Shown piece by piece: positions 18,077-63,707 of a stretch of 64,000 bases of DNA. Positions within the stretch are counted from its first letter, which is position 1; every line of letters begins with the position of its first letter. The translations under genes and the position numbers were made by a program. Under the pieces are notes generated by a model. The model searched no databases. It worked only from the letters and a program-made list of their open reading frames with translations, and was not told the DNA's origin. The stretch spans positions 1-64,000 of the forward strand of contig NC_083377.1 of assembly GCF_029542785.1 (NCBI RefSeq), written 5' to 3'. The DNA is from Malassezia japonica. Lineage: Eukaryota; Basidiomycota; Malasseziomycetes; Malasseziales; Malasseziaceae.

Positions 18077-18617
18077 ATGGCCGCCGAGCGGTACGTGCAG
18101 CGACTGACACAGCCTCACGGTTCATGCGCGTGCTACGGTCGTGGCCGATGCGGATCTCTGGGGCGAGATTGAGATCGGGTCTGGCACGGTGATCCATCCT
18201 CGCTGCAAGATTGATGCGAGCCTCGGGGCGATCCGACTTGGGCAGAACTGCGTGGTCGAGGAAGGGGCCGAGCTGATCAGCACGCCGTCCGGCATGACGG
18301 TCGGCGACGGCAACGTGTTCCGCGCGCGGTGCCACGTCTCTTCGTCAACGATTGGCAACAACAGCACGTTTGAAAGCGCGTGTCGCGTGTGGGCCAACGT
18401 GACGGTCAGCGACTTTTGTACGGTTGGCGCGGGCTGCCATGTCGGTGCCGACGGCGTGCCCGACGCGCTCTCCGAGCGCACCGTTGTCTACGGATACGGT
18501 GCGCGGCGTGTATGGAGTGGCGAAGGCGTTGGGCAGCAGCTGGCGCTCCATGCCAAACACCTCGTCTACCTGCGGGACACGCTGCCCCGCGCACACAAGT
18601 TACGTATCGTTCGATAG
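18077..18617 (+). CDS. Dynactin subunit 6 (p27), left-handed beta-helix protein
   Basis: Exons 18077-18090 and 18113-18617, separated by a 22-nt intron (donor GTACGT, branch CTGAC, acceptor ACAG). Joining restores a start ATG and the N-terminus, which runs into TVHARATVVADADLWG. The body is a hexapeptide-repeat beta-helix, with rungs such as IGSGTVIHP, LGQNCVVEE and VGDGNVFRA, matching DCTN6 of the dynactin pointed-end complex. The protein is 172 residues. It would help couple dynein to cargo and to kinetochores. The stop codon is followed after a single base by the stop of the convergent gene. Confidence 0.85.
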
Positions 18618-18618
18618 T

Positions 18619-19350
18619 CTACAGCTCAAACCCTACATCGCGCGGCGCGTCACGCAGGTACGCCTCGGCCTGCGAGGCAAGTTTGTCGGCGCGCACGCGG
18701 CGGCCCGGTGCCGGGCGTGGCGCGCGTTTTTCGCCCGCTTGCGCCGTATCGAGCGCCGGGAGCGGCGGCACGTCGACTGTGTCGAGGACCGGGAGCGGCG
18801 TGCTGTCCGAGGGCCAAGCGACCGACGCGAGCATCTGGCCGATTTCCTTTGCGCTCGGCATCCCGTCGAGTTCCGGGGGAAAGACGTACGGTGCGCTTGG
18901 CCCCTGCGGCATCGTCTCAATCTCTGGGTACATTTCCTCCTCCGACATGAGCGCTGTTGGCGCCTCGATCTGGGTATCTTGTTCGACCTGTGCGTCATGC
19001 ATTTCGCCGAGGCGCGCCTTGATCTGGCCGGCGCGGCCGATGTTGGCGGCGGGCGTGACAAAGCTGTCGCTGCGCACAAACGGCCTGCGCACCGTCTGCG
19101 GTGCCTTCTTGGACGGGCTTCCGAGCTTGCTCGGCGACGCGGCGTGGCGTGCGGGCGACGGCGACTGGTTCGTCTTGTCGGAAAAGGCTGCGCGCCCGAT
19201 GCGCGACGAGGTCGCCTTGCCCTCCTTTTTAAATGGCGACGTGCTCTGAGTCTGCTTCTCTAGGCCTTGGCGCCGCGCGAGGCCCGGCGTGCGGGTCGGC
19301 GATGCGCCGTACGGCGCATTCTCCTGTGCGTACGCCCGCGAATGGAGCAT
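18619..19350 (-). CDS. Securin-like (Pds1/Cut2-type) candidate
   Basis: 243 residues, mostly disordered, with basic N-terminal and acidic or Pro-rich C-terminal halves, the general layout of securins. Suggestive motifs are RQGLEKQ (RxxL destruction-box-like), the RAAFSDKTNQ segment reminiscent of securin and cyclin N-termini, and an acidic MYPEIETMP motif resembling the separase-binding DIEYMP segment of Cut2/Pds1. Securins evolve fast and these similarities are short, so the call is an inference. The ATG at 19350 is the first on this strand. It shares a 52-bp intergenic region head-to-head with ARP4. Confidence 0.4.
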   Translation of the reverse strand: MLHSRAYAQENAPYGASPTRTPGLARRQGLEKQTQSTSPFKKEGKATSSRIGRAAFSDKTNQSPSPARHAASPSKLGSPSKKAPQTVRRPFVRSDSFVTPAANIGRAGQIKARLGEMHDAQVEQDTQIEAPTALMSEEEMYPEIETMPQGPSAPYVFPPELDGMPSAKEIGQMLASVAWPSDSTPLPVLDTVDVPPLPALDTAQAGEKRAPRPAPGRRVRADKLASQAEAYLRDAPRDVGFEL

Positions 19351-19402
19351 AAGCAAGCCGTGTCGCGCTCACGTGATTTGCCGAACGCTGCGCCCTGCGA
19401 CG

Positions 19403-20815
19403 ATGCCTGGCGTGTACGGCGGCGACGAGATCAATGCGATTGTGCTCGACCCTGGAACGTCGCTGTTCCGGGGTGGCTGGGCCGGTGAGGACCAGCCTCG
19501 GGCGCTTTTCCCGTCGCACTACGGCTGGCTTCCGATGAACGACGAGGACCGCAAGCTGGCGGCGGACAGCGCGCCTGCCGCGTCGAACGGCGACGTGTCC
19601 ATGGCCGAGGCTGACGAGCCTGCGGCGGCGAAGCCGTCACTCCCTCGTGGTGTGTCGTACGATACTGGGCGCGAGCGCAAGCGCTTTGTGGGCGACGCGG
19701 GTGTGTCGTACTGGCGCAGTGGCCTCGAGATCGACACGCCGTTTGACGAGGGCATTGTGCGCGACACGTCTGCGTTCGAGGCGCTGTGCAGCCATGCGAT
19801 GGACGTGCTGTCGGTGGACGCCAGCGAGAACCCGCTGCTCTTGACCGAGCCCCCGACGAACCCCAAGTCGGTGCGTGCGTCGATGGCGGAGGTCGCGTTC
19901 GAGGGCCTGAACGTGCCTGCATTCTACCTCGCGAACCGCACCGTGCTAAGCTCCTTTTCGAGCGGCCGCCCTACGTCGCTGGTGGTCGACGTCGGCGCGT
20001 CGCACATTTCGGCGATCCCCGTGGTCGACGGTTTTGTTTTGCGCAAAGGCATTCATACGCAGCCGAATGGCGGCGACTCGGTCTCCCGTGCCCTGCTCTG
20101 GGAGCTGACGCATGGCCAGGGCGACAAAAACATGCACGGGTGGCTCTCGGACAGTTTGATTCCCCAGTACCTCGTCAAGTCCAAGTCGCCGGTTGACCCC
20201 GGCATGCCCCCTCACTGCACGCTGCGCGACGACCGTCTGCAGCACACGGCCAAGTCGTTCCGTGCCTACCACACGATGCGCCTTTTGGACGACATGAAAG
20301 AGGCTCTGTGCCAGAACCTCGAGGCGCCGTGGGACGCGGCGCAGGCCGCGGCGCGCCCGACCAAGATGTACGAGTTCCCAGACGGGTACAACGATGCATA
20401 CGGCACGCTGCGCTTCAAGGCGCCCGAGACGGTGCTCACGCCGTCGCTGTACACGGCCTCGCCCGAGGTGCTTCCGCCCCGCGAGCAGGGCTACGTCGGC
20501 CTTACCGAGATGATCCTGAACGCGGCCAAGTCGGTGGATGTCGACTCGCGCGCGGCCATGTTTAGCAACATTGTGTGCGTCGGCGGCGGCTCGTTTGTGC
20601 CGGGCTTTATCGACCGCCTGAGCTACGAGCTGAGCGTCGCTGCGCCGAGCCAGCGCATCAAGATCCACTCGCCGGGCAACTACACCGAACGCCGGCACTC
20701 TACGTGGCTCGGTGGCAGTATCCTTGCGAGTCTCGGCACCTTCCACCAGCTCTGGATCAGCAAGCAAGAGTACGAGGAGCACGGCAGCGCCATTGTCCAC
20801 GCCCGGTGCAAGTAG
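19403..20815 (+). CDS. ARP4: Actin-related protein 4 (chromatin remodelling / NuA4)
   Basis: 470 residues, single exon. The actin fold is evident: N-terminal INAIVLDPGTSLFRGGWAGEDQPRALFP-type phosphate loop, VVDVGASHISAIPVVDG in the second phosphate loop, and NIVCVGGGSFVPGF in the adenosine motif. The family-specific features of Arp4/BAF53 are the WAGED motif, an acidic insertion after residue 55, and the conserved TEPPTNPKSVRASMAE segment. Arp4 is a shared nuclear subunit of NuA4, SWR1 and INO80. The ATG at 19403 matches the family start. Confidence 0.92.
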   Translation: MPGVYGGDEINAIVLDPGTSLFRGGWAGEDQPRALFPSHYGWLPMNDEDRKLAADSAPAASNGDVSMAEADEPAAAKPSLPRGVSYDTGRERKRFVGDAGVSYWRSGLEIDTPFDEGIVRDTSAFEALCSHAMDVLSVDASENPLLLTEPPTNPKSVRASMAEVAFEGLNVPAFYLANRTVLSSFSSGRPTSLVVDVGASHISAIPVVDGFVLRKGIHTQPNGGDSVSRALLWELTHGQGDKNMHGWLSDSLIPQYLVKSKSPVDPGMPPHCTLRDDRLQHTAKSFRAYHTMRLLDDMKEALCQNLEAPWDAAQAAARPTKMYEFPDGYNDAYGTLRFKAPETVLTPSLYTASPEVLPPREQGYVGLTEMILNAAKSVDVDSRAAMFSNIVCVGGGSFVPGFIDRLSYELSVAAPSQRIKIHSPGNYTERRHSTWLGGSILASLGTFHQLWISKQEYEEHGSAIVHARCK

Positions 20816-20848
20816 TTCATAGCTCCACATTCTCGGCCGGCAGTCACC

Positions 20849-21598
20849 ATGGCGGGCAGTGAGAACGGCGTCTCGGGCGTGCTGGGCAAGCTGATGCCGA
20901 CGCAGAGCGAGGACAGTGGTGCGCCGAAGAAGAAGATGAGCCGCCAAAAGGCGCGGCTTGCGCGCCGCGACGCGGCCGCCGCGCAGATGCGTGCGGACGC
21001 CGAGCAGGAGGTTGTTGACGAAAACAACCAAGAGGCCGCGGACGAGGCCAAGGCGCTGAAGGAGGCGTGCGACGAGCTGGATGTGACGCTGTGCGAGGTA
21101 CGTGGTTTCACTCACACAGATTGCGCCGGATGGGCACTGGTATGTGGACGCACTGACCCAGTCTGTACGCGGCGATCGCCGATCAGCTCAATGTGCGGTA
21201 CCCTGCGCAGGAGCCGTACACGTACGACATGCTGCGCATGGCCGCTGCGCGGTACATGCGCCAGCACAGTGCCGACTTTATGCCGTTCATCTCGGACCTG
21301 GACGAGTCGCAGGCAGGCGTCCAGGGCGAGAACACTGCCGAGTCCAAGTTCCTGCAGTACTGCGACGCGATGGAGTCGACGTCCGCATGGGGCGGCCAGC
21401 CCGAGATCCTCGCGCTCTCCAAGGTGTTCCACACGCCGATCCACGTCATGCAGCCGGGCATGCCGATGGTCAAGATCGGCGACGAGTTCGACAAGGCGCC
21501 GCTGCTTATCTCGTACCACATCAAGCTCTTTGGCTTGGGCGAGGTACGTGCTTTGACTAATACAGCATTACAACTCGCTGCGCCCTGCTTCGCACTAA
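20849..21598 (+). CDS. OTU2: OTU-domain cysteine protease (OTUD6B/Otu2 type)
   Basis: Exons 20849-21097, 21120-21139, 21162-21543 and 21566-21598; all three introns are 22 nt. The product is 227 residues. An N-terminal Lys/Arg/Ala coiled coil (MSRQKARLARRDAA) precedes the OTU domain. Splicing builds the catalytic motif PDGHCLYAAIADQL, with the active-site Cys codon split TG/T across the second intron. The final 11-codon exon supplies HYNSLRP with the catalytic His. This family removes ubiquitin and, in yeast, acts on ribosomal protein ubiquitination in translation. The splice solution is supported by uninterrupted family motifs on both sides of every junction. Confidence 0.92.
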
Positions 21599-21662
21599 CT
21601 ACTTTCCATAGGGCGTCGGACTCGGCTGCGAATAGGTATCGTCGCTGCGTCAGACACGCAAC

Positions 21663-23186: not shown

Positions 23187-26091
23187 ATGCGAGGACCGCG
23201 CGCTCCGCCCGGGCGCCAGAATGGCCTCTACCAGCAGGTGCAGGACGCAATCGACCCTGAACCCGGGCTCCCCCCGCCGCAGGGCCCAATGCACCCTGCC
23301 CAGCAGCCGCACGCACCAAGTTACGATGCAGGTCCAGGCTACCCGCCGCTCCAGCCGGCGTACGCTGGCGACGCCGTGCCGGGGCGCCCGCGCATTTTTT
23401 CTGAAACGAGCGCGACGAGCGGCACGACAGACGCACACCACGCACTAGTCGACTCCTACATGGACAACGGCATGGATCCCGCATATCCCCACTATTCCGA
23501 AGAACTGCACGAGCCGCGCTACATTACGGCCGCCGACGCAGTCGACCCGCTGACATCGATGGGGAATGTGTACAGCGAAGACGAGCTGCGTATGCCGCTC
23601 ACAGACAAGGACTATGCCTCGTCGTATGGGCCGCACGGAGGTCGTGGCAGTTTTCAAGACCCCCGCTTTGGCATGCACCGTCCGAGCGCGTCGATGATCG
23701 ACTTTAATCCGGACGACCAGAGCAGTGGGCTGGGATGGGTCGAGCGGCAGCAGCCGCCGTCGCACGGCCACAAGCGCCAGGTCGAGCTGAAAGGCGGCAA
23801 CTGGATTGTGGACTACCCCGTTCCCTCCCCAGTCTCGAACGCGGTCGAGCAGCAGTACCGTGCCGAGGGCCAGCCGAAAGAGTTTACGACCATGCGCTAT
23901 TCGGCTGTGACGTGCGATCCGGACGAGTTTACGCGCGAGAATGGATGGGGACTGCGTGCGTCCACCGAGTACGGCCGTGCGACCGAGTTATTAATCTGCC
24001 TCACGTACTACAATGAGGACCGCAATCTGCTTACGCGCACGCTCTATGGCGTCATGCAGAATATCCGCGATATCTGCAAGAACCGCTGGTCCAAGTACTG
24101 GAGCCACTGCTCGGAAGAAGGGCGGCCGGCCTGGCAGCGCATTGTCGTGTCGCTCGTCTACGACGGCATCGACCCGTGCGACAAGGAGACACTCGACGTA
24201 CTTGCGACGATGGGCGTGTACCAGGACGGTGTAATGAAGCGCAAGGTCGATGACAAGGAGACGGTCGCGCATCTCTTTGAGTACACGACGCAAGTCGCCG
24301 TCGATTCGACACCCAAGCTCGTGCAGCCCGCGCAGGGAAGCGACAGCAACCTCGTGCCGGTGCAAATGATCTTTTGCATGAAGCAGAAGAACTCGAAAAA
24401 GATCAACTCGCACCGCTGGGTCTTTAATGCGCTCGGCCACCATCTGGACCCCGAGGTGTGTGTGCTGCTCGACGTCGGTACCAAGCCCGGCACCCGCTCC
24501 ATCTACCACCTCTGGGAGGCGTTCCACAACAACCCCAACCTCGGCGGTGCTTGCGGCGAAATTCACGCAATGATCAAGCGCGGCGCCAAGCTGCTCAACC
24601 CCCTCGTTGCCGCGCAAAACTTCGAGTACAAGATCAGTAATATCCTGGACAAGCCGCTGGAGTCGACGTTTGGGTACGTCAGCGTCCTGCCCGGTGCATT
24701 CAGTGCGTACCGCTACCGCGCGATTTGCGGCCGGCCGCTGCAGCAGTACTTCCACGGCGACCATACGATGGCCGCGCAGCTCGGCTCCAAAGGCATGGAC
24801 CAGATGAACATCTTTAAAAAGAACATGTTCTTGGCCGAGGACCGCATCCTGTGCTTTGAGCTCGTGGCCAAGGCGGGCGACAAGTGGGTCCTCTCCTATG
24901 TCAAGCCGAGCAAGGCCGAGACGGACGTGCCCGAGCACACGGCCGAGCTCATCTCGCAGCGCCGCCGCTGGCTCAATGGCTCGTTCGCGGCGTCGATCTA
25001 CTCGTTGGTGCACTTTTACCGCTTCTACCGCAGCCGGCACAATTTTGTGCGCATGTTCTTTTTCCACGTCCAGGCGCTGTACAATCTGTGCCAGCTGGTG
25101 CTTTCGTGGTTTGCGCTCGGCAATCTGTGGCTCACCTTTGCGATCATCATCCAGTACCTGCCCGATGTGCTCCTGCGCGATTTCCCCGACGTGTGGCTCA
25201 TTGCCTTCCACTGGATCAACCTGGTGTTGATGTGGGTATATGGCTTTTTCCTTGCACTGCAGTTTGTGCTTGCACTCGGAAATCGACCCAAAGCAGAGCA
25301 CATCACGTATGCACTATCGATCCTCATCTTTGGTCTGCTCGGCACCTATGTCATGGGCGTCTCGCTATGGCTCACGATCCACTCGTTACTCAATATGCGC
25401 GTCAAGGACGGGAATTATACTGAGGTGATCTTTAGCAGCACCACGGCAGTGCTCATTGCGTCACTCGCTGCCATGTTTGGCATCTACCTCATTGCCTCGA
25501 TCCTCTATGCAGACCCCTGGCATATGGTGACCAGCGTCGGGCAGTACTTTTTCCTCGCGCCCTCGTTTGTGAACGTGATCAATGTGTACGCCTTTTGCAA
25601 CCTGCACGATGTGAGTTGGGGCACAAAGGGCTCCGACAAGGCCGATGCACTACCCTCTGTCGATACCTCCAAGAAGGCCTCGGAGGGTGGCGCGGTGGAG
25701 GAAGTGGCCTATGACCAAGCGGACCTCGACGAGCGTTTCCGCGGCGTGGTGAGCCGTGCTATCAAGCCGTACGAAAAGGAGCACACGGTCGATCGGCCGA
25801 CACCAGACGACAGCAACAAGACGTTCCGTACGCGTCTCGTGGCATTTTGGCTCTTTACGAATGCGATCTTGGTCGCGGTCGTGATGAATTTGTACAGCTA
25901 CACCCCTCACGAGAAACTCGACAAGGAAGCTTCGCAGGGCCAGCAGAACCAGCAGTACTACTTCAAGGTCATCCTATGGTCCACCTTTGGCGTACGTACC
26001 CCCGCTCACCCAGATCGCCTTCTTCCGCTTTGTAGGCTGCCTGATCTACTGGTTCAAGCGCCAAACCACGCGCTGGTTCCACAAGACCTAG
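23187..26091 (+). CDS. Chitin synthase (division 1, Chs1/Chs2-like)
   Basis: Exons 23187-25991 and 26014-26091 with one 22-nt intron near the 3' end. The product is 960 residues. A disordered N-terminal region of about 200 residues precedes the GT2 catalytic domain: TYYNEDRNLLTRTLYG (UDP-GlcNAc binding), a DVGTKPG motif, LPGAFSAYR, EDRILCFEL and the processivity signature SQRRRWLNGS near residue 590. Seven or so membrane helices follow. The last exon adds the conserved IYWFKRQTTRW-type C-terminus. The enzyme extrudes chitin at septum or bud tip. The first ATG in the frame is 23187; the frame is open further upstream without a start. Confidence 0.92.
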
Positions 26092-26167: not shown

Positions 26168-27247
26168 ATGTCCGGCAAGTCGGTCGAGACGTGTACCGCC
26201 CTGTGCAAAATGCCTGGGATATTGTATGGTACCGCCTGGAAAGACACCCAGACGACCCAGCTCGTGTTTACTGCGTTTCTGTATGGCTTCCGTGGCGTAG
26301 ACACGGCGGCGCAGCGCAAGCACTACCGCGAAGACTTGGTCGGCGAGGGTGTGTTGCAGGCCAGCAAGCAGTTGGGCCTTTCCCGTGGCGATGTGTGGCT
26401 GCAGACCAAGTACGTCTATGCACTGACCCAGATTCACGCCCGTGTCGGGTCAGGATACCAGTGGCCCCCTTCCGTACGACCTGCATGCGCCGGTTGCGGA
26501 ACAGGTCTGTGCGAGCTTCCAGAGCAGTCTAAAGAACCTGCATCCCGAGTCAAAGATCCCCTCGGTGACCGATCTCGTGGCCAAGTACGCAGTCACGGCG
26601 CGTGGCAACCAAGGCAAGAATCTCGGCCCACCCCCCAAGCAGGAGGTGTACATTGACAGCTACCTGTTGCACTCGCCGCTGAGCACGCTCGAGAGCACGC
26701 TCGAGGCATGGCATGTGCTCGAGGCGCTTGTCGACACTGGGCTCGTTCGCCAAATCGGCCTGAGCAGTACGTTTCCCCTGCTAACCCAGATGTCTATGAT
26801 CCCCAGATCTTTCAGACGCTGTTCCAGCTTGCACGCATCAAGCCGAGTGTCGTGCAGAACCGCTGGCACAGCTCTACTGGCCACGACGTGTCGCTCCTTC
26901 CCCTTCTTTCGCCGACGCTCTCGCCGAACGCGTTCCCCCCCGCGGCGTCGGTCGGCGACGAGCCGCCGCACGGCGTGACCTACCAGCCGTTCTGGACACT
27001 CACTGGAAACCAACGCCTGGTTGAGTCGGACACGGTCGCGGTGCTCGCGATCAAGCACAGCCTGACGCCTGCGCAGGTCATTTATGCGTACGTGCACCAA
27101 GGCCTCGGCATCCCTGGCCTGTCGACGTGCGTGCTGAGCGGCACGAAAGACGAAAAGCATATGGAGGAGGCCGTGCGTGCCGTCTCCCTGGACCCCTGGG
27201 AGGAGGACGATCTGACCGCGCTCCGGTCGGAGCTCTATGGCGAGTAG
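26168..27247 (+). CDS. Aldo/keto reductase family oxidoreductase
   Basis: Exons 26168-26409, 26432-26766 and 26790-27247; introns are 22 and 23 nt. The product is 344 residues. The AKR barrel is recognisable: GILYGTAWKD in strand 1, GFRGVDTAAQRKHYRED (catalytic Asp and Tyr), WLQTKF (catalytic Lys), YLLHSPL (His) and VRQIGLSNVY. The second splice creates the GLSN motif from ags-a and at. It should reduce aldehydes or ketones with NADPH in the cytosol. The substrate is unknown. The next gene begins only a few dozen bases downstream on the same strand. Confidence 0.88.
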
Positions 27248-27272: not shown

Positions 27273-27802
27273 ATGTGGAGGTGCGTTCCTCCCCCGGCCA
27301 CGATGCTTGTCCCGCCGCCGAACTTTGGCATGGTGGAAGAGAGTCTGTACCGCTCAGGGCAGCCGGATCAGCTCAACTTTCCTTTTCTCGAGAAGTTGGG
27401 CTTAAAGAGTGTCATCTGGCTCGCTCCGGAGGAGCCCGAGATTGGATTGTGCGTCGCGCGACTGACCCCAGCCAGCACTTTTGTGCGGACCAAAACATCG
27501 AGGTGCACCACCTCGGCGTGCTGTACAGCACCAATGCGTGGGACCCGATTACAGAAGAGATTGTGCTCCAGGCGCTGCACCTCCTCGTGCAGCCGAGCAC
27601 CTACCCCTGCCTGGTGATGTGCAACCTGGGCCGGCATCGCACCGGCACCGTGATCGGCTGCCTGCGCAAGCTGCAAAAGTGGAACTTGAGCGCGATCCTC
27701 GAAGAATACCGTCGGTTTGCCGGCCCCAAGGTCCGTGTAATGAACGAGCAGTTCATCGAGCTCTTTGACGAGGAACTCGTCTTTGGCGATAATGATGCAT
27801 AG
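27273..27802 (+). CDS. OCA1: Oca1-like dual-specificity/tyrosine phosphatase
   Basis: Exons 27273-27448 and 27472-27802 around a 23-nt intron with donor GTGCGT. The product is 168 residues. The N-terminus VPPPNFGMVEESLYRSGQP matches the Siw14/Oca family. The phosphatase loop is CNLGRHRTG, a proper Cx5R signature, preceded by Met rather than the His of Siw14, as in Oca1. Family members hydrolyse inositol pyrophosphates or act in oxidant-induced cell-cycle arrest. An ATG at 27303 is equally plausible as start because it lies directly before VPPPNF. It is only 25 bases downstream of the reductase stop. Confidence 0.85.
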
Positions 27803-27835: not shown

Positions 27836-28974
27836 CTACCGCGACCCCAGCATGAGCACCAGTTCGTAGATCGAGAACGTGACGATCGCGTTCGGAATCA
27901 CGCGCATGAGGTGCGCGCTGAGGCCGCCGTACAGCGCCGCGAGCCCCTCTTCGCGCCAGACCAGCGCACAGGTCTGGACGAGGCCGGTGTACTTCAGCCG
28001 GCCGTGCTCGGGCTGCTGCCGCAGGCGCGTGCGGATCACCTCGTGGGGATACGTAATGACGGTCGCGACGAGCTTGGCGGTGCCCGCCGCAGAGATCGTG
28101 TGCACCCACCGCGAGCCGGGGGCGTCGGCAGGCGGGGGGTCCCAGCGCTTCAGCTGCTCGTACAGCACCCACTGGATGGTGCTTTCCGAGACGCCGAGGT
28201 ACGATGCGCTGAGGCCCTTGTACAGTCCCCGCACGCCTTCTGTGCGCAGGATGCTCATGGTCATGCTCAGCGCATTTGTGCCCGGGTGCTGCGGCGGGCG
28301 CGTCTGGAAGAAGCGCGACGGCCGCAAGGGCGACGTGACGATCGAGCGGCGGGCCTGGCTTACTGCCGGGTCGACCGTCTTGGGCACTGGCCGTGCGCCG
28401 CGGTGTATGCCGACAGCTTCGGCGCGCGCCGCGCGTGAGCGTGCCTCGACCTGCTGCGACTCGAGCTGGAGCCGCGTCTTGACTACCCAGATCGGGTTGG
28501 TGGCTGTGGCCGTAATGACGCCGGCGAGCGCCGCGGCGCTGAGGTGCACCATCGCCGACTCTTGGCCCTTATTAAAGGTATCCGCAAGGATCTGCTTGCC
28601 GTTGCCGTAGGTGTAAAAGTTGATGGCGCGTGCGGGAATGACGCCGACGAGCGTCGGCCCGAGTCCCTTGAAGAGCGCCGGCGTGCCCTCGCGGCGAGCG
28701 ATTTCACTGCGTGAGAATAGCAACGTACACTAGCAAGCTCCCCGTATCCGCAAAGTGCATGCAGCCGCGCATAATCACCCCCGTGACGCCCCGCTGGGAC
28801 ACGGCGATCTCGGCGCGGTGGCGGTAGAGGTCCGACTGCAGGCGCGTCTTGACGACGTCGAGTGGCGACGTAATAATGGCTCCGCACATGCCGCCCGCAC
28901 TGTGTTAGCCTATCTACGTACCCTCCTGCGGCAAAGTGCAGCCATCCCGGGGGGGTGCGTTGGCGCTCGCTCAT
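27836..28974 (-). CDS. RIM2: Mitochondrial pyrimidine nucleotide carrier (Rim2 type)
   Basis: Exons 28974-28922, 28899-28729 and 28706-27836; both introns are 22 nt. The product is 364 residues. Three repeats of the mitochondrial carrier family are seen, with signatures SPLDVVKTRLQ, NPIWVVKTRLQ and YPHEVIRTRLR. The Trp in the second-repeat signature (PIWVVKTR) is typical of the pyrimidine nucleotide carriers Rim2/SLC25A33/36. The extended matrix loop between repeats 2 and 3 also fits. It imports UTP/CTP-type nucleotides for mtDNA and RNA synthesis in the inner membrane. It is head-to-head with ADE4, 83 bp apart. Confidence 0.9.
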
Positions 28975-32642: not shown

Positions 32643-33385
32643 ATGGCGTCGCTGCTAGGGTAGGTGCCAAAGCTCACGCAGCATCTCGCGCCCGTCCATG
32701 TTTCTTCCCCGGCGTGCTGCCCCGGAGGGCAGTCGTCCTTTGTACGTGCCCCTGCTAATGTCAGCCAGCTCAAGAAGCTCGCCGAGTCGACGCTCGGCAG
32801 CGGCAACCTGAACGTGGCCGTGCGCCTCCCAGAGGGCGAGCGCCCGGAGGAGTGGATTGCCGTGCACAGTACGTGGTGGGGCTAATGCAGCGGTCGACTT
32901 TTTCAATCACCTCAACATTCTCTACGGCACAATCACGGAATTCGTACGTACCGCGTCTCACACAGTGCACGCAGCGCGAATGCCCGGTGATGTGTGCCGG
33001 ACCCCGCTTCGAGTACCACTGGCAGGACTCGACCTCGACCAAGTACCGCCGCTCGACGCGCCTGTCCGCGCCGGACTACATTGACTGCCTGCTGAACTGG
33101 ACGCAGGCGCAGATTGACGACCCGGCGCTCTTCCCAGTGAGCACCGACGCGCCGTTCCCGGCAAACTTTGTGGACCGCGTCAAGGCGATTCTGCGCCGCC
33201 TGTTCCGTGTGTACGCGCACATGTACAACCACCACTTTGCGCAGATCTGTGCGCTGCGCCTCGAGACGCACCTCAACACGTCCTACCGCCACTTTTTGTT
33301 GTTTGTTACCGAGTATCGCTTGGTCGACCCCAAGGAGATGATTCCCCTCGCGGAGCTCAACGAGGCTATTTTGGACGAGAACTAG
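32643..33385 (+). CDS. MOB1: Mob1 kinase activator
   Basis: Five exons: 32643-32659, 32682-32741, 32765-32868, 32891-32943 and 32966-33385. Introns are 22, 23, 22 and 22 nt, and the first exon is only 17 nt. The product is 217 residues, the size of Mob1. Conserved blocks are intact across the junctions: LAESTLGSGNL, VDFFNHLNILYGTITEF-C, ECPVM (zinc Cys), YIDCLLNWTQ, FRVYAHMYNHHF (zinc His) and HLNTSYRHFLLF. Mob1 binds and activates NDR/LATS kinases (Dbf2, Cbk1 type) in mitotic exit and septation. Removing all four introns is needed to obtain one frame. Confidence 0.95.
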
Positions 33386-37124: not shown

Positions 37125-37679
37125 TCAGTGCGCCGGTGGGCGCGCGACGCTCGGCGGAGGCTGGGAGAAGTTGGGCGGCGGCTGGGCGAAGTTGGGCGGG
37201 GGCACGCTCATATTCGGCGGGGGCACGCTCATATTCGGCGGAGGCACCGTGATCGGCGGGCGCACTGACGGCGGGGGCACCGTCGGCACGGCGCCTGTCG
37301 GCAGCGGCGGCGGCGGCGTGGTGATCGGTCCCTGTCCCAGCGGCGGGCGCACTGCGTCAGACATGCAACGTACCCATCGGCGGCGGGCGCCCGTACGGCC
37401 CCAGGAGCTCAAGAGGCGGCGGGTATCCCCGCTTTTGGTAGTCCTTCATCAACGTATCCACCACTCCCTGGATCTCGTACGGCGGAAGGGCTGCGTAAGA
37501 AGAAAAAACGTACATGCATAATAGTCGCGCACATTCTGCAGATGGTTCCTGCCGCAGTTATGGGCCTTGCGCACTGCGTTAGTACTTTTGCGACCTACCC
37601 GACGTCGAGTCGTGCGTAAGGAACACGTCACAATAGTCTGGGGTCAGCTACGTCACGTACCGCAATAGTGCTTCCCCAT
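37125..37679 (-). CDS. U1 snRNP protein C
   Basis: Five exons: 37679-37661, 37637-37599, 37573-37514, 37490-37374 and 37351-37125. Introns are 23, 25, 23 and 22 nt. The 153-residue product begins MGKHYCDYCDVFLTHDSTSV and continues RKAHNCGRNHLQNVRDYY, the U1C zinc finger with its C2H2 ligands. A Pro-rich tail follows, with near-identical PPPNMSVPPPN units. U1C stabilises U1 snRNP pairing with the 5' splice site. No single open frame covers the zinc finger, so the gene is invisible without splicing. Its own transcript carries four micro-introns. Confidence 0.94.
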
Positions 37680-37751: not shown

Positions 37752-39221
37752 ATGTCGCAGAGCCTACTGGCGCACCTGCAGCATGCGCTGATCCGCATTG
37801 CGACGATCTCCCCCCGCGTGCTTGCGAGTCCTCCGACGCAGCCGAGGCGCGCGAGTGTGGCGCTCATTGTGCGCATTCGTCCCGCTGCCGAGGACGAGTC
37901 GTGGCTCCAGTCGAAATGGCGGCATGGCGAGGTGAAGGAGGAGGATGCGCACTACTTCCCCTCGATGACACGTACGTCTCTATGCTTACACAGAACAAGA
38001 CGCAAACGGCACGTTGAGTACCGAGGCGCGTCTGCGGCAGTTCTTCTCCCTACCGTGGGTGCAGCGCGGCACGGCCGAGCTGTTGTTCATCAAGCGCGCT
38101 GCGCGCGAGAACGACCAGTGGTCGTCGCACGTCGCGTTCCCTGGTGGCCGTCGTGACGAGGAGGATGAAAGTGGCCTGTACACGGCGATGCGCGAAACCT
38201 GGGAGGAAGTCGGGATCGACCTTGCCGAGAAAGAATTCCTGCAGGTCGGTCACCTCGAGGACCGCGAAATTACGAGCAGCCTCGGAAAGCGCCTCTTGAT
38301 GATTTTGAGCCCGTATGGTACGTGCTGCTGCTCATCCAGTTTTCCTGCAGCTTTCGCCCTTCTCGCAACCGCCCCACCTGCAGCCGAGCGAAGTCGAGTC
38401 GGCGCAGTGGGTCCCGCTCAACCTGCTCTTTACGCCCAAGCCCAAGTGGGGCACCATCCACATCGACTTTGCGCGCCATGCGCCGAGGAGCTCTGCAGTG
38501 CGCGGCATGCTGCGCCTGCTCATCGGCAAGATGTCGTTCCGGTGCATTGAGCTCCCCAACCGCCCGACCGCCCTCGCGGAGATCAACGAGAACGACCCGT
38601 CGGTGTCGACTGCGGGCCTGATGCCTAAGGCGGACCTTCCCGATGCAAAGAGCGAGGACGACGACGGCGTCACGCGGCAGCTCACCGACTCGGAGCAGGA
38701 CTACATGGAGCAGTGCACGCCGCACCTGCAGCTGTGGGGCCTCACGCTCGGCATGACGCTCGACTTTCTCGCGCACATGTCGACGCACAATATGCACCTG
38801 CTCCCCCGCGACGCGCGCTCCAAGACGATTGTCGAGCGCGTCATGGCCTACACGCCCTCGAGCTGGTTGCTTGGCGCGCCCGACGGGGGCGTGCCCGTGC
38901 GCAAGGCGCCGAGCGTCGTCGAGGTGTTCCCGCGCTTCAGCTACCCCGATGTCAACTTCTGGATCTGGGTGTTTGGGTGGCGCTACCGCGTCATCCAGCG
39001 CGGCTGGGAGCGGAGTATCGGCACCGAGATGGAGCGCCGCGCGCACTGGTCGGGCCTTGCGCTCGCCGCATTCTAGTACGTCGCTATACTAACCCAGCTC
39101 GTGCGTCCGCCGTGCTCTCCTCGTCGCGATCGTCCTGCGCGCGCTCGGCCTCGTGAGCCTGACGGGCTTTGTGTCTTATATCGCCGTGCGCCGGATGCGC
39201 CGGATGCGCGCCACTGCATAA
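37752..39221 (+). CDS. Nudix hydrolase with C-terminal membrane tail
   Basis: Exons 37752-37971, 37994-38317, 38340-39075 and 39098-39221; all introns are 22 nt. The product is 467 residues. The Nudix signature is in GGRRDEEDESGLYTAM-RETWEEVGID, around residues 120-145, most like CoA/NADH-type pyrophosphatases of the NUDT8/PCD1 group but with a long C-terminal extension. The third intron begins inside what would otherwise be a TAG stop (TA from the exon, G from the donor). Splicing adds 41 residues with a hydrophobic helix and an Arg-rich end. Start codons at 37752 and 37668 are both in frame; the latter would overlap U1C. Confidence 0.85.
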
Positions 39222-44644: not shown

Positions 44645-45932
44645 ATGGCTATCGAGAAGCAGAAGGTCGCCATTATCGGCTCAGGCAACTGGTACGTTTA
44701 GAGCAAGCGAGCAAGCAGCTAACACTGCGCAGGGGTAGCGCCATTGCCAAGATTGCGGGTACGTACAGGCACAGCCTGTGGGGATTCGAGGTACTGACCG
44801 ACAGGCTACAACGCTGCGCGCCACTCGGACTCGTTCGAACGCCAGGTGAACATGTATGTCTACCAGGAGAAGGTAGGTGCTGCGCGCCCTGAGCGGAATA
44901 CTGACTTCTAGATCGACGGTCAGAACCTGACGGACATCATCAACGAGGAGCACACCAACAAGAAGTACCTCCCCAACGTGCAGCTCCCCGAGAACGTCGT
45001 TGCCATCTCGAACGTCGAGGAGGCCGCGCGCGACGCGACTCTTCTGATCTTCGTGCTGCCGCACCAGGTACGTTTTTGCTGCATGGAGAAGCTCACACGA
45101 CAGTTCATTCTTAATGTCTGCAAGTCGCTCAAGGGCAACATCTCGCCCAAGGCCCACGCCATCTCCATGATCAAGGGTGTCGACGTGCGCGACAACAAGA
45201 TTAGCATTTTTGCCGACGTCATCCAGGAGGCTCTCGGCATCCCTTGCGCTGCTCTTAGCGGTGCCAACATCGCCAACGAGGGTACGTTACTTTTTTTTGC
45301 TCACAGCAGTCGCCCGCGACAAGTTCTCGGAGACCACCGTCGGCTACCGCCCCAACCAGCGCGAGCTTGCCCTGTCCTACGTCAAGCTCTTTGACACCAA
45401 CAACTTCCGCGTCGGCATGATCGACGATGTTGCCGGTGTCTCGCTCTGCGGTGCCCTCAAGAATGTCGTTGCCATCGGCGCCGGCTTCTGCGATGGTCTC
45501 GGCTGGGGTGACAACGCCAAGGGTACGTTTCCACTGACTAACCTTAGCTGCCATTATGCGCATTGGTCTTATGGAGATGAAGAAGTTCTCGCTCGAGTTC
45601 TTCCAGAACGTCAAGCCCGAGACCTTTACCGAGACCAGCGCCGGTATTGCTGACCTGATCACGACCTGTACGTATGGCGACACGACTGACCTCCAGGCTT
45701 TGGTGGCCGTAACCGCAAGTGTGCCGAGGCCTTTGTCAAGACTGGCAAGCCCTTCTCGGTCCTCGAGGCGGAGCTGCTCAACGGCCAGAAGCTCCAGGGT
45801 ACCGAGACCGCCCGCGAGGTCTACCAGTATCTCTCGTCGCGCAACCGTGTCGATGCCTACCCTCTCTTCCGCACGATCTACAAGATCTCGTTCGAGGGCA
45901 TGCCCCCGGCCCAGCTCACTTCCGACCTCTGA
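44645..45932 (+). CDS. GPD1: NAD-dependent glycerol-3-phosphate dehydrogenase
   Basis: Eight exons: 44645-44691, 44733-44758, 44805-44872, 44912-45067, 45104-45281, 45310-45522, 45548-45667 and 45697-45932. Introns are 41, 46, 39, 36, 28, 25 and 29 nt, longer than those of the neighbours. The product is 347 residues. It has the Rossmann motif [38 protein letters not shown], the catalytic-lysine region [17 protein letters not shown] and [10 protein letters not shown]. The enzyme reduces dihydroxyacetone phosphate to glycerol-3-phosphate for osmolyte and lipid synthesis. Intron-dense 5' ends and longer introns are typical of highly expressed fungal genes. Confidence 0.95.
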
Positions 45933-46931: not shown

Positions 46932-47410
46932 ATGGCCACTGACGAGAACTGCATCTTTTGCAAGATCATCGCTGGCAAGATCCCCTCGCGCAAGTTCCTC
47001 GAGACGGAGAAGAGCTATGCCTTCCTCGGTACGTTGCACGACTAACGCAGATATCGGACCTTGCTCGCGGGGCCACAGCCTGATTATCCCCAAGCATCAC
47101 GCTGCCAAGATGCACGAGCTTCCGGATGACAGCCTTGCCGACATTCTGCCGGTCGCCAAGAAGATTGCGATCGCCACGGGAGCGACCGACTACAACGTGC
47201 TGCAGAACAATGGCCGCATCGCGCACCAGGTCGTGGACCACGTGCACTGTACGTGTATACGCTAACGCAGTTCATGTTATCCCCAAGCCTACCGAAGAGC
47301 AAGGCCTAGTTGTCGGCTGGCCCTCGACCAAGCCTAACAACGAGGAGCTGGACGATGTACGTGGGGGGGTCTCACCACAGGTGTACAAGAAGATGATGGA
47401 GAAATTGTAG
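46932..47410 (+). CDS. HNT1: HIT-family nucleotide hydrolase (Hnt1/HINT)
   Basis: Exons 46932-47028, 47051-47248, 47271-47356 and 47381-47410; introns are 22, 22 and 24 nt. The product is 136 residues. It begins with the zinc-type motif CIFCKIIAGKIPS. The histidine triad VVDHVHFHVIPKP is built by the second splice, between HVH and FHV. Hnt1 hydrolyses adenosine 5'-phosphoramidates. The third intron is a multiple of three and has no stop, so its retention would insert eight residues without breaking the frame. Confidence 0.95.
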
Positions 47411-51113: not shown

Positions 51114-51820
51114 ATGGCCACGGACGAGACGCTGAAGCCCTACCAGTCGGAGTACATCGAAAATGCCCTGAAGTGGGATATCCTCCGCTTCGGTGGTCCC
51201 TTCACTCTCAAGTCGGGCCGCAAGTCGCCCTACTTCTTCAATGCTGGCCTGTTCAACTCTGGCATGAAGCTGCAGATGGTGGCCGAGTGCTACGCCAACC
51301 GCATTGTCGACAGCGGTGTTGAGTTCGACGTGCTCTTTGGTCCTGCGTACAAAGTATGTAATTTTGCTAACAGCAGGGTATCCCCCTTGTCGCTGCGACC
51401 GCGCTGGCGCTTGCCAAGAACCACGGCCGCGATGTGTCGTTTTGTTTCAACCGTAAGGAGGCCAAGACGCACGGCGAAGGTGGTAACCTTGTCGGAGCTC
51501 CTCTCAAAGGCCGCGTGCTTGTCGTCGACGACGTGATCACGGCCGGCACGGCGATTAACGAGGCGGTCGACATCATCAACGCGCAGCCTGATGCGAAGCT
51601 CGAGGGCGTCGTTATCGCGCTGGACCGGCAGGAGCGTGCTACCGAGGACAGCCCGGAGAGCGCGATCATGCAGGTGGAGAAGCGCCTGGGTGTCAAGGTG
51701 TACAGTGTGGTGACGCTCGGCCAGATCATCAAGCACATGGAAGTGACGCGCGGTGATGAGGCTCGCAAGGACATCGATAGCATGCGCGAGTACCGTGAGC
51801 GGTACGGCTGCAGCGCCTAA
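51114..51820 (+). CDS. URA5: Orotate phosphoribosyltransferase
   Basis: Exons 51114-51353 and 51377-51820 with a 23-nt intron (donor GTATGT). The product is 227 residues. The family motifs [31 protein letters not shown] (across the splice), [13 protein letters not shown] and the PRPP loop [16 protein letters not shown] are complete. It converts orotate and PRPP to OMP in pyrimidine synthesis. The frame is open a short way upstream of the ATG, but similarity begins at [11 protein letters not shown]. Confidence 0.95.
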
Positions 51821-51931
51821 GTAGCGATAAAAGCGTGCGCACGAGCAGAGTACCGGCGCGAGAAGATCGGCAGGACGCATTATAGCAGGAGGGCTTGAAG
51901 TAGACACGACAAACTGAGGATTACATCGCTT

Positions 51932-52011
51932 GGGGAATTAGCTCAGTGGTAGAGCGCTTGCTTAGCATTACTGATTGCATGAGGCCGTGGGTTCAATTCC
52001 CACATTCTCCA
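51932..52011 (+). tRNA. tRNA-Ala (anticodon AGC) with a short intron
   Basis: The cloverleaf can be drawn directly. The acceptor arms are GGGGAAT (51932-51938) and ATTCTCC (52004-52010), including the G3-U70 wobble pair that specifies alanine. The D arm is GCTC/GAGC, the anticodon loop is TTAGCAT with AGC, and the T arm is GTGGG/CCCAC around TTCAATT. An insertion of about 8 nt after position 37 acts as the intron. The anticodon stem has one U-U mismatch. The discriminator is A at 52011. Confidence 0.92.
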
Positions 52012-52018
52012 TTCTTTT

Positions 52019-52098
52019 GCTGAATTAGCTCAGTGGCAGAGCGCTTTTTTAGCATGATTGTCTGCATGAGGCCGTGGGTTCAATTCTCACATTTTCCA
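52019..52098 (+). pseudogene. Degenerate tandem copy of tRNA-Ala
   Basis: This repeats the preceding tRNA at an offset of 87 bases, including the intron position and the T arm. The acceptor stem is damaged: positions 2 and 3 become C-C and T-T mismatches and the G3-U70 identity pair is lost. The anticodon stem has a run of T with several mismatches. The AGC triplet and B-box region survive, so it might still be transcribed but should not fold or be charged properly. Confidence 0.75.
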
Positions 52099-52322
52099 TT
52101 TTATTGAGTTTTTAAGCCTCGCTCTTTTTTGGTTGGGACGTTGTAGGAGTGGTACATTGGAGGGCCTGCGATGGGTCCATGTTGCCTTTTCGTTGCCGGT
52201 TGCGCCGAGTGTCGTTCGGGGACAATTCCAGCTGCATGACACAGCGCTTCGATAGTCGGTGAGCTTCTCGCATTCACGCGCCGTGGTGATCTATATATAC
52301 TGTTCACCAGAGAGATACTATC

Positions 52323-54968: not shown

Positions 54969-54991
54969 ACAGTGTCATAGCTAGCGAAGTC

Positions 54992-56391: not shown

Positions 56392-57159
56392 ATGGGGGGG
56401 CTGGTGGCCTATAGCGATTCGGAGGAGGAGGAGGAGCGGTACGCACTGCCTCCGGTGTGCTTGGATGATGGCGGATCGCGCGACGAATGGCTCAGTCATG
56501 TATATTTACCAGGTAGGTTCCCCATCTGACCCAGTGCCGAGCGACAACCAGCCGATGAAAAACCTGCTTCGGAGGGTCGTAGAGCAAGGGTGCACGTACC
56601 CCGGCTTTTGCATGTTGTCCGGCGAAGGTGGCCGTAGCTTGCACCTCTCGCTTACACGCCCCATTCTCATACGCAAGCACGAGCAAAAATCGTTTGTCGA
56701 CCAGGCAGCACAGTGCGTGCGAGAGAGCCAGGTCGAGCGGTACGTTGCGCAACTTATCCAGCTTCTCGGTCGGCTTTGCGCGCTTTACGAGCTTCCCAAG
56801 CGACACTTCGGATCGTGTGTTCTTGGCGCTCGAGACGAATGCGGGATGGCACGAGGTACGTGCCACGACTAATGCAGCTGCAGTCCCTCACAAAAGCACT
56901 GAGCCAGCGGCTCTATGCCCTATTCCGCGCACCTATGTACTATCAGCAGCCGCGCTTTCACGCAAGTGTGGCGTACTGTGAGCCGACTGAAGCGTGCCCC
57001 CGCGCCGCGCTCGAACGGATCGGCGAGGAACTCGCCTCGGCGTTAAATCGGTCGCTGGACACGTACCTGCGTGCCCTCCGCCCAATTTATGCACAGACAA
57101 TCACGGTACAGGTCGGCAAAGCAAGAGATAGTGTGACGATCCCTATTCGAAGTAAATGA
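56392..57159 (+). CDS. USB1: U6 snRNA 3'-end phosphodiesterase Usb1
   Basis: Exons 56392-56512, 56535-56739, 56762-56855 and 56878-57159; all three introns are 22 nt. The product is 233 residues. Two HxS motifs of the 2H phosphodiesterase fold are seen: LHLSLTRP and, near the C-terminus, FHASVAYCEP. Between them lies FSVGFARFTSFPSD, which spans a splice. Usb1 trims the oligo-U tail of U6 and leaves a protected end, keeping U6 stable for splicing. The acidic N-terminus (SDSEEEEE) is typical. Its stop lies 6 bases from the convergent RCF2-like gene. Confidence 0.9.
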
Positions 57160-57165
57160 GTGAAT

Positions 57166-61114: not shown

Positions 61115-61225
61115 TCCCATACCCAATATAGCGCCGCCGGCACCGGGACAATTAGTAAAACCTTGCTGCGAAACCGCATTGGTGTGCAGCTGTGGCCCCG
61201 GCGCGGTGTATCACTCACACACACC

Positions 61226-62650
61226 ATGACTCAGGTAGGTGGCCGAAATAGCTAACCACTGGCGGCCGAGCGCGCTGTGCCATCTGTCCCCCCTCCCCAG
61301 GTGCACACTGTGGACAGCATCACGCACACAGTAGAGGCACTTTCCACCGAGGCGGTGCGTAGGCAAAACTCACACAGTACCCCGAGACCTCGTATGATGG
61401 GCTGCCTGAACTGATGAGCGCTGTCGAACAGTCGCCGAGCGGCACGGCCCGCGTGAGCCGTGCGATCCGTAAGCGTCTCAAGTACGGCACAGTCCATGAG
61501 CAAAAGCGCGCACTGACCGTATGTGTTTCTCGAGCTTACCCAGATTCTCGAGGGCCTGGTCGAGATGGGCTCCAAGGACTTTCAGCGTATGTCATTCTGT
61601 CTAATCCAGGCAATTTTGCGGACATCAAGCTAGTCGAGCGCATCAAGTACATTGCCAACAGCGTCACGTCGGACGCAGGCGTGCGCCGCAAGCTCATGTT
61701 GATTCTTTTGTCGTGGCGCCGCCACTTTGCGCATGATCCTAGCATGGTCTATGTCACCAGTTTGTACAGCCAGTGTGGTGGCGTGGACCGCGTTGCTCCT
61801 GTACAGACCGTCGGCCGTGGTGCGCCGCACGGGGAGCACAACACGGCCGTGCACCCCGATGTGGGTTCGGGCCTGACGCACAACATCAACTCGGTACGTC
61901 GCTTTGCTAACGCCAGGGCATGACCAGTGTCGACGGAACGATCGCTGTCGCTCAGAAGGAGTCGTCTCACCTGCTCCAGGCAATGGTCGACGCGCAGAAG
62001 CGGGGCATCTCGGTGCTGGACGACACCCGCGTCCATACGCACGTGAACAATGTGCTGGCGGAGCAGAAGGAGGTCGTCAAGTACATCCACTCGGTCAGCG
62101 ACGAGGAGTTCCTCAACATGCTCGTGCACGCCAACGATATCATTGTCGATGTCCTACAGCGCCTCCAGCTGGTACGTTTTTTATTTGTTTGCTGCTGACC
62201 CAGGCCGCATCTGGCGATCCCGTGCAGCAGCACCCGCTTGGTACGGACCCGCCGCCGAAGGAGGACATTGTTACGCAGGCCGCCCGCCGTCTCTCGGCCG
62301 TCGCGCATGGCGCCGAGGGTGGCTGGACGAACCTGTCGCACCAAGTGGACGCCTCGCTGGTGGCCAACTCGGGCTTTACGACTGCCGCGCCTTCGCGTGG
62401 CGCTCCGCCGGAGGACTACGACACGGACTCGGATGCGGACGAGATCGACCTGAACGTCGCCGCGCAGAACACGCGTGCGACCGAGGGCATAGCCCAAGGC
62501 GTGACCCCGGCCGATCGCGCCGCTGCGACCGAGGGCGTCGACCCATTCGATGTGGCGCCTGTGCCGGGGCTTGGGAAGCCCGCCCCGCCTTCCTCGGAGA
62601 CGCACCCGGGCGCTGCGCCGCCGATCACCAATCCGTTCCACTTGTCATAG
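61226..62650 (+). CDS. LSB5: VHS-GAT domain protein (Lsb5-like)
   Basis: Seven exons: 61226-61234, 61301-61354, 61378-61518, 61544-61586, 61610-61893, 61917-62171 and 62204-62650. Introns are 66, 23, 25, 23, 23 and 32 nt. The product is 410 residues. The VHS domain runs from VHTVDSITHTVEALSTEA to IKYIANSVTSDAG, and the GAT three-helix domain is at about residues 180-265 (LLQAMVDAQKRGISVLDD through HANDIIVDVLQRLQL). The acidic tail ends NPFHLS. Lsb5 links ubiquitin, Arf and the Las17 actin machinery in endocytosis. The first intron is uncertain: an alternative GAG acceptor at 61270 also keeps the frame. Confidence 0.82.
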
Positions 62651-62751
62651 AGCGCCGCTCGGTTTAGTCCGCAGCCTCCACACTGTGAATTCTCACGTGG
62701 CCGCCCAGTGCCCGTGGAAGTGGCCAAAACGCCGGGGTAACGTTGGACAAC

Positions 62752-63707
62752 ATGACTGCGAAACAGAACGGAAACGAGCTCCGCCAGCGGTTCAATTCTG
62801 ACCGCAAAAGCAGCAAGGATGACCTGCGTCAAGACGCCGAGGTCGAGCTGAAGCGTTTCATCGAGACGAACGGCCACTTTAGCCTGGTCCGGTACGTGGG
62901 CGCACTAACGCAGCAACTTTCACCTCGCTGACGCTTTTACGCTGATGAACGGCTTCTGTGGCGCGCAGTCGATTTTCATGTCGGGGCGCTTCCTTGTGAC
63001 CTCTGACCCGAAGTACATGTGGTACGCGCTGTGGTTCCCCTTCTTTGGCGCGATCTTTGACATGCTTGACGGCAAGATCGCGCGCTGGCGCCGCTCGAGC
63101 AGCATGCTCGGCCAGGAACTCGACTCGCTCGCGGACTCGGTACGTGTTCTTTCTAATGTAGATTTCGTTCGGTGTCGCGCCGACATTTGCCGCGTTCGCG
63201 CTCGGCCTGCGCTACCCGCTCGACACGGCGCTCCTCACGGTGTTTGTGTGCGCGGGCGTTGCCCGCCTTGCGCGCTTCAATATCACGGCTGCTAATGTTC
63301 CACACGATGCATACGGCAAGTCTCGCTACTTCGAGGGGCTGCCGATCCCGTCGAGCCTTGCGCTTGTCGGTCTGATGGCGCTCTCGATTCTCTTTGGCCG
63401 CTTTGAGACCTCGAACGGGCCATGGGTGCCGAGCACGACGACCTACCCGTACACTGGCCGCTTCCTGTCGTATCTGGGCGTGGCGAGCGGCGCGGGCGTG
63501 CCGTTTGGCGAGTTCGTCCTGGACCTTACCGTGCCGGTGTATAAGCTGCTGACGCTCGGCGACTTCCTGCCCCAGTTCATGAGTCTGCCGGACATTGCCC
63601 AGCTGGCCAACTCCTTCGGCTATATTGCTATGCACAAGGTTTCTATAATTTTCGCGCTGTGGTCGATGGCCATGGTCAGCAAGACGCTCCGCGTCCCGAA
63701 GCCGTAG
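62752..63707 (+). CDS. CHO1: Phosphatidylserine synthase (CDP-diacylglycerol-serine O-phosphatidyltransferase)
   Basis: Exons 62752-62891, 62914-63139 and 63162-63707; both introns are 22 nt. The product is 303 residues with about six membrane helices. The CDP-alcohol phosphotransferase signature is complete in DMLDGKIARWRRSSS and GQELDSLADS. NFHLADAFTLMNGFCGAQS and PIPSSLALVGL further match Cho1. The enzyme makes phosphatidylserine in the ER, the entry to PE and PC through the CDP-DAG route. The second intron uses a TAG acceptor. Confidence 0.94.

What the first reader, a model, noticed from the sequence alone, without database searches (positions are those of the whole stretch)
18077..63707. 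A genome of 22-nt introns with fixed geometry
I placed 79 introns by joining conserved protein motifs in frame. 40 are exactly 22 nt and 16 are 23 nt; none is shorter. In the 22-nt class the layout is nearly invariant: a GTACGT-like donor at 1-6, a spacer of about 7 nt, a CTNAC-like branch box with its A at position 17, then NCAG. That leaves 16 nt between the 5' splice site and the branch A, well below the 40-plus nt I know as usual for yeasts and other fungi. The sharp floor and 22-23 nt peak suggest a spliceosome tuned to a minimal length.
Basis: partly seen in the sequence, partly recalled or inferred. Interest (0 to 1): 0.88.

Follow-up and report, generated by a model that had tools for sequence, protein, structure and literature searches.

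The report
Malassezia introns piled at 22 nucleotides
A Malassezia skin yeast has about half of its sampled short introns at exactly 22 letters and none reliably shorter, which suggests that its ordinary-looking splicing machinery can work across a gap far smaller than human splicing tolerates.

Summary
The window is the telomeric end of contig 8 of an 8.43-Mb, 9-contig Malassezia genome. With a flat intron-length prior, my gene finder placed 187 introns in 264 kb (window plus ten 20-kb stretches). 86 are exactly 22 nt and, after fixing three double-CAG acceptors, none is shorter. Three decoy motif sets gave 0, 0 and 1 at 22 nt. Without gene models, the donor-to-branch spacer is 7 nt at 91 places, 8 nt at 12 and 0-6 nt at none. 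Smut-fungus MOB1 proteins force two DNA gaps of exactly 22 nt.

There are two walls: no branch A before position 17 where its place is unambiguous, and at least 5 nt after it in the introns checked. U2 and U6 snRNA, U2AF large subunit, SF1, a METTL16-family enzyme, SNRNP27 and U1-C are present and look conventional, so a rebuilt spliceosome is not shown.

I read these as conventional introns shortened by deletion bias down to a physical minimum. 'Very short introns' in Malassezia are in print; the 22-nt wall and geometry I did not find in ten searches of open papers. RNA evidence is lacking.

The parts
32643..33385 (+). MOB1-like gene, four introns: 32660-32681 (22), 32742-32764 (23), 32869-32890 (22), 32944-32965 (22)
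   Evidence: tblastn of smut MOB1 on raw DNA gives two 22-nt gaps
32869..32890 (+). 22-nt intron 3 of the MOB1-like gene, branch A at 17
32944..32965 (+). 22-nt intron 4 of the MOB1-like gene, branch A at 17
46932..47410 (+). HIT-family gene, introns 47029-47050 (22), 47249-47270 (22), 47357-47380 (24)
   Evidence: solved homologue aligns across the three junctions
37125..37679 (-). U1-C splicing protein gene, introns 37638-37660 (23), 37574-37598 (25), 37491-37513 (23), 37352-37373 (22)
20849..21598 (+). OTU-family gene, introns 21098-21119, 21140-21161, 21544-21565 (all 22)
62752..63707 (+). CDP-alcohol phosphatidyltransferase gene, introns 62892-62913 and 63140-63161 (both 22)
56465..57159 (+). 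HVSL-family (USB1-like, name recalled) gene, introns 56740-56761 and 56856-56877 (22); a predicted 39-nt intron 56513-56551 contains a full 22-nt motif
51354..51376 (+). 23-nt intron of the orotate phosphoribosyltransferase gene; the CAG 3 nt after the branch A is skipped
27303..27802 (+). tyrosine-phosphatase-family gene, intron 27449-27471 (23)
26168..27247 (+). aldo/keto reductase gene, introns 26410-26431 (22), 26767-26789 (23)
27836..28974 (-). mitochondrial carrier gene, introns 28900-28921 and 28707-28728 (both 22)
   Evidence: Pfam family matched but the junctions were not covered by the one stretch shown
37752..39221 (+). NUDIX gene, introns 37972-37993, 38318-38339, 39076-39097 (all 22)
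25992..26013 (+). 22-nt intron near the 3' end of a chitin-synthase-like gene
18091..18112 (+). 22-nt intron, first of the reported range
44645..45932 (+). glycerol-3-phosphate-dehydrogenase-like gene (name recalled) with seven introns of 25-46 nt and none of 22

Best explanation
These are ordinary U2-type spliceosomal introns of a Malassezia yeast that have been shortened to a physical minimum. Shown by sequence: donor GTACGT-like (1-6), seven free bases, branch box CTNAC/T with A at 17, then N-CAG; where the branch A can be placed unambiguously none has it before 17, and in the introns of 60 nt or less none ends closer than 5 nt after it once three double-CAG acceptors are read at the second CAG; longer values occur for both distances. 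Inferred: deletion bias in a compact genome shortens introns until one more lost base would stop splicing, so they pile up at the sum of two minima, 17 + 5. Inferred: the first minimum is the shortest RNA link that lets the 5' splice site (held by U1, then U6) and the branch helix (held by U2 with its SF3B proteins) be engaged together; the second is the shortest reach from the branch A to a usable AG. No pyrimidine tract is present, so recognition must rest on the strict donor, branch box and CAG.
For: Flat-prior gene finding and decoys; two-sided geometry (A at 17 in 103 of 187, at 14-16 in none; end 5 nt after A in 119, 4 nt in none); spacer 7 at 91 places, 0-6 at none; double-CAG resolved to the later acceptor by homology in one of three cases; counts fall from the wall, 86, 25, 7 at 22, 23, 24 nt after correction; protein evidence for junctions; U2, U6, U2AF large, SF1, U1-C and SNRNP27 present; some genes have only longer introns and lengths cluster within genes, p = 0.016, as expected if 22 nt is a limit, not a preference.
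Against: No RNA evidence. The finder requires a branch-like box, GT and AG, so introns without them are invisible and could be of other lengths. A preferred exact length is not excluded. One of 187 has its best-scoring box at 13 (it has a second at 17), and one intron above 60 nt is called with AG 3 nt after A. Intron length does not correlate with a codon-bias proxy (rho 0.08, p 0.50). Deletion bias was not measured, since no close relative's DNA was held.
Confidence: 0.68

Rival explanations
1. 22 nt is an optimum, not a wall: the machinery splices this exact length best and selection holds introns there, as reported for nucleomorph introns, where 18-20 nt are removed well and 21-27 nt less well (PMC5014332, passage).
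For: The peak is one nucleotide wide with a near-invariant layout.
Against: 83 of 169 introns of 60 nt or less are longer than 22 nt; all deviation is upward; some genes carry only 25-49-nt introns. None of this is decisive.
Confidence: 0.22
2. The 22-nt introns are recent copies of one mobile or template-derived element, so the fixed length is inherited from a source.
For: Identical length and shared donor; a mild G-C preference at positions 8-9.
Against: Spacer pairs with at most one mismatch: 22 against a mean of about 15 in column shuffles, reached by 10 of 200 shuffles, a slight excess; whole introns within two mismatches: 10, reached by 40 of 200. No two of the 86 are identical, and lengths run on to 23-50 nt. 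With only 7 free bases, old copies could not be told.
Confidence: 0.06
3. Not introns: frameshifts, pseudogenes, assembly errors, or removal by another route.
For: Only that no RNA evidence was available.
Against: Signals at fixed places, decoys nearly empty at this length, conserved genes whose frame is restored only by removing the segments, and annotated M. furfur and M. nana MOB1 proteins without the segments.
Confidence: 0.02

Closest known systems
Introns of other Malassezia (M. restricta, M. arunalokei, M. globosa)
   Same: Genus and very short introns (PMC7426719 passage; M. restricta median 30 nt, PMC9241646 table passage; gene prediction with minimum intron 15-20, PMC6473144 passage).
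   Different: The passages seen give averages (M. globosa mean 79 nt, PMC4634964; M. restricta 37), not a 22-nt mode, a floor or a branch geometry. Different annotation methods may explain part of it.
Short introns of Trichomonas vaginalis and Encephalitozoon cuniculi
   Same: About 25 nt and 36 nt on average, with strict donor and branch signals (PMC2483917, PMC3629993, passages).
   Different: Those genomes are intron-poor; here about 0.8 introns per kb of coding sequence in the sample.
Ultra-short introns of Paramecium, Bigelowiella nucleomorph and dicyemids
   Same: Length of the same order, high density.
   Different: Those lack a recognisable branch signal (PMC2483917, passage); here the branch box is near-invariant in the introns found, though the finder requires one.
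Human short introns needing Smu1/RED or SPF45
   Same: The same problem of bringing the two ends together; no or short pyrimidine tract (PMC6692369, PMC8363638, passages).
   Different: Human extract fails at 46 nt between 5' splice site and branch site; here it is 16 nt. U2AF large is kept although no pyrimidine tract is seen.

Membership tests
U2-type spliceosomal introns | GT...AG ends at gaps forced by homology alone | tested here: met
   The two 22-nt gaps forced by smut MOB1 proteins correspond to GT...AG segments. The finder itself requires GT and AG, so its 187 do not test this.
U2-type spliceosomal introns | Branch box complementary to U2 with a free A | tested here: met
   CTNAY at 14-18 in all 86 of the 22-nt class (a box somewhere is required by the finder, its place is not); U2 has GUAGUA.
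U2-type spliceosomal introns | U2 and U6 snRNA genes in the genome | tested here: met
   One match each above the gathering score.
U2-type spliceosomal introns | U1 snRNA in the genome | tested here: inconclusive
   No match at E 0.001 with Rfam U1 (41 of 132 candidates scored; control silent); pattern search gave five places, three read, none U1-like.
U2-type spliceosomal introns | Excision from RNA with a lariat | not testable with these tools
   No RNA data.
Degenerate-signal ultra-short introns (Paramecium, nucleomorph) | No recognisable branch signal | tested here: not met
   Branch box at a fixed place.
Smu1/RED-dependent short introns | Smu1 and RED genes present | tested here: inconclusive
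   No match for RED_N or for LisH_TPL, which I took from recall to mark Smu1; the controls were silent, so absence is not shown.
SPF45-dependent, U2AF-independent short introns | Short or absent pyrimidine tract | tested here: met
   Spacer 51% pyrimidine, 25% T; only N-CAG after the box.
SPF45-dependent, U2AF-independent short introns | SPF45 present; U2AF not used | tested here: inconclusive
   Six G-patch places, two looked at, none assigned; the U2AF large subunit gene is present.
Introner-derived introns | Near-identical copies in many genes | tested here: not met
   No identical pair among 86; similarity near column shuffles with a slight excess.

The most novel reading that the evidence does not exclude
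Malassezia carries an otherwise conventional spliceosome, with U2AF large subunit and SF1, that can bridge as little as 16 nt from 5' splice site to branch A, about a third of the human limit. Its intron-length histogram therefore reads out two physical constants of the machine (17 and 5). It does so with a +4C donor that should pair with neither a canonical U1 nor the U6 ACAGA box, although a METTL16-family enzyme and SNRNP27 are kept, so U1 may have changed with it; and perhaps it does so without RED and Smu1.
Probability: 0.3. Interest if true: 0.78.

Novelty: new variant of a known kind. Interest (0 to 1): 0.56.

Why it matters
Human splicing in vitro is reported to need roughly 50 nt between 5' splice site and branch site (PMC6692369, passage). 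A yeast with 16 nt, strict signals and conventional-looking factors makes the minimum spacing a measurable quantity. It also runs against the reported trend that genomes full of very short introns lose their splice signals (PMC2483917, abstract and passages). Transformation of M. furfur and M. sympodialis is in print (PMC5654937, start of abstract in the listing), so it can be tested. Practically, annotation with a usual minimum intron length would miss or break many genes in such genomes.

Tried and rejected
Considered and rejected: pseudogenes or frameshifts (conserved proteins intact after removal); a length bias built into the gene finder (flat prior, decoys); acceptors closer than 5 nt (three of three 20-21-nt calls are double CAG, one of them shown by homology to use the later CAG); recent copies; loss of U2AF as the explanation (large subunit found).

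Led nowhere: U1 snRNA; RED and Smu1 (controls silent); SPF45 through G-patch (six places; two looked at, in L012 and in L045, no firm assignment; the other four not read); correlation of intron length with a codon-bias proxy; the species name (not resolved).

Papers: 15 opened, all by passage search, none read whole. Three Malassezia genome papers (identifiers recalled: Zhu 2017, Gioti 2013, Xu 2007) are not held, so a prior description of the 22-nt mode there is not excluded. The statement that I found none in print rests on searches.
Full report
What the window is. The window is bases 1-64000 of contig 8 of a genome of 8,433,779 bases in 9 contigs and begins with telomere-like CCTAAT repeats. 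The MOB1 protein encoded at 32643-33385 is 88% identical over 97% of its length to a Malassezia furfur protein and 82% over 88% to one of M. nana; named hits below these are largely smut-fungus relatives (120 of 1537 hits listed). So this is a Malassezia; the species was not resolved.

Check of the observation. A plain motif scan of 16-64 kb gives 40 distinct 22-nt and 16 23-nt candidates against a mean of 0.25 per strand at 22 nt in Markov shuffles. Outside the window, 200 kb from six contigs gives 59 at 22 nt against 1.6 expected. To avoid building the length in, I wrote a codon-and-signal gene finder with a flat prior on length from 12 to 200 nt and on branch-to-AG distance. It returns 187 introns in 264 kb (3.1% of the genome): 86 of 22, 24 of 23, 5 of 24, 7 of 25, 5 of 26, then a thin tail. 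With letter-mapped decoy signals the same program returns 55, 54 and 46 introns of scattered lengths, with 0, 0 and 1 at 22 nt and 4, 2 and 8 at 30 nt or less against 136. So the short ones are nearly all real, while the few predicted introns above about 80 nt are no more frequent than in the decoys.

Independent evidence for the length. Smut-fungus MOB1 proteins aligned to raw DNA with no splice information give three blocks in three frames; for two of four queries the blocks are exactly consecutive residues with two gaps of exactly 22 nt, and for the other two (one of them M. furfur) the blocks overlap by a few residues at one end. Spliced MOB1, HIT-family and U1-C proteins align with solved homologues with no gap at the junctions covered. 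Over 19 proteins, 33 of 55 junctions fall inside the matched Pfam stretch shown: 14 of 27 for ten window proteins and 19 of 28 for nine sample proteins of the 14 printed. The other 22 lie outside and are not tested by it.

Geometry. Among 187 introns the branch A is at position 17 in 103 and 18 in 18, at 14-16 in none; one is placed at 13 but also has a box at 17. From A to the end there are 5 nt in 119, 6 in 20, 4 in none and 3 in four, of which three are the 20-21-nt calls and one is longer than 60 nt. The three short calls end in CAG followed by CAG. In the orotate phosphoribosyltransferase gene, stopping at the first CAG puts in a glutamine that the aligned homologues lack, so the second is used. 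Without any gene model, GTA[CTG]GT followed by CTNAY-N-YAG occurs with a 7-base spacer 91 times, 8 bases 12 times and 0-6 bases never. The 22-nt intron is thus the sum of two minima.

Signals. Position 4 of the donor is C in 143 of 187 and A in 4. The seven spacer bases are 51% pyrimidine with 25% T, so there is no pyrimidine tract; the upstream exon base is G in 42 of 86; spacer similarity among introns is near what shuffled columns give, with a slight excess (10 of 200 shuffles reach it), against recent copying. Introns fall in all three phases.

Machinery. U2 and U6 snRNA are single clear matches with the branch-pairing GUAGUA and the ACAGAGA box unchanged. Found and matched to solved structures by sequence: U2AF large subunit (below the curated cut-off of its NCBIfam model), SF1, a METTL16-family methyltransferase whose match to the U6 enzyme 9u47 covers residues 15-400 but whose best match is psilocybin synthase, SNRNP27 with the aligned methionine (a partly low-complexity match) and U1-C. 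Not found: U1 snRNA, RED_N, LisH_TPL, but the controls for these were silent, so this is not absence. SF3B1, Prp8, U2AF small, U4 and U5 were not searched.

How it most likely works. Introns are sparse (about 0.8 per kb of coding sequence), so exons are long and sites are presumably paired across the intron (inference). In human extract a 5'-splice-site-to-branch distance of 46 nt abolishes splicing (PMC6692369, passage); here it is 16. The simplest account is deletion-driven shortening that stops at the machine's limit, giving counts that fall from the wall (86, 25, 7 at 22, 23 and 24 nt after correction). An optimum at 22 nt is the main rival. Some genes have only longer introns (window 44645-45932; four others at the head of the list have all introns of 26-49 nt), several of which look like highly expressed housekeeping genes by names I recalled, and lengths cluster within genes (p = 0.016). 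That would favour a wall, but it was noticed after the fact, and a codon-bias proxy gave no correlation (rho 0.08, p 0.50).

What is known. Malassezia's 'very short introns' are in print (PMC7426719), with an M. restricta median of 30 nt (PMC9241646). U. maydis reaches 24 nt (PMC2219887). T. vaginalis (about 25 nt) and E. cuniculi have short introns with strict signals, while Paramecium, nucleomorph and dicyemid introns are short with weak signals (PMC2483917). The METTL16-to-+4A link of Saccharomycotina (PMC10581693) does not fit the +4C seen here. These are passages, not whole papers. The passages I saw do not state a 22-nt mode, two walls or the 17 + 5 geometry for Malassezia; three genome papers were not held. 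I therefore call it a new variant of a known kind.

Limits. No RNA data; 264 kb of 8.43 Mb examined; introns without a branch-like box, GT or AG are invisible to the finder; six of 38 introns of 28-60 nt contain a full 22-nt motif at their 5' side and may be misread or alternatively spliced.

Noticed in passing
window 51931-52099: tRNA-Cys and tRNA-Ala genes head to tail, 5 bases apart by ARAGORN (Rfam agrees on both).
   Followed up: no
window 1-240: Telomere-like CCTAAT repeats, i.e. TTAGGA-type and not TTAGGG; four telomeric repeat types are reported in Malassezia (PMC12506658, passage).
   Followed up: partly
window 1-16000: G+C 44-53%, then 57-66%; no 22-nt-type intron candidate in the first 17.5 kb, unlike the dense stretch beyond.
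   Followed up: partly
predicted introns, window and sample: Donor +4 is C in 143 of 187 and A in 4, although a METTL16-family enzyme and SNRNP27 are kept; should pair with neither canonical U1 nor U6 (recalled).
   Followed up: partly
window 44645-45932; C2 502062-502791; C2 509452-509924: Genes whose introns are all 25-49 nt and never 22; length clusters within genes.
   Followed up: partly
L030 1501-1605 (minus strand): U6 has one base more than the Rfam consensus just before the AAGGAUGA stretch.
   Followed up: no
protein P0002, about residue 178 of the MOB1 alignment: An unnamed relative has ten extra in-frame residues, perhaps a 30-nt intron read through, at a place where this genome has no intron.
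   Followed up: no
window 56513-56551 and others: Six of 38 longer predicted introns begin with a complete 22-nt motif followed by a later AG: alternative acceptors or wrong models.
   Followed up: no
window 37125-37679 (minus strand): The gene for the U1-C splicing protein itself carries four introns of 22-25 nt, so the splicing machinery depends on splicing them.
   Followed up: no
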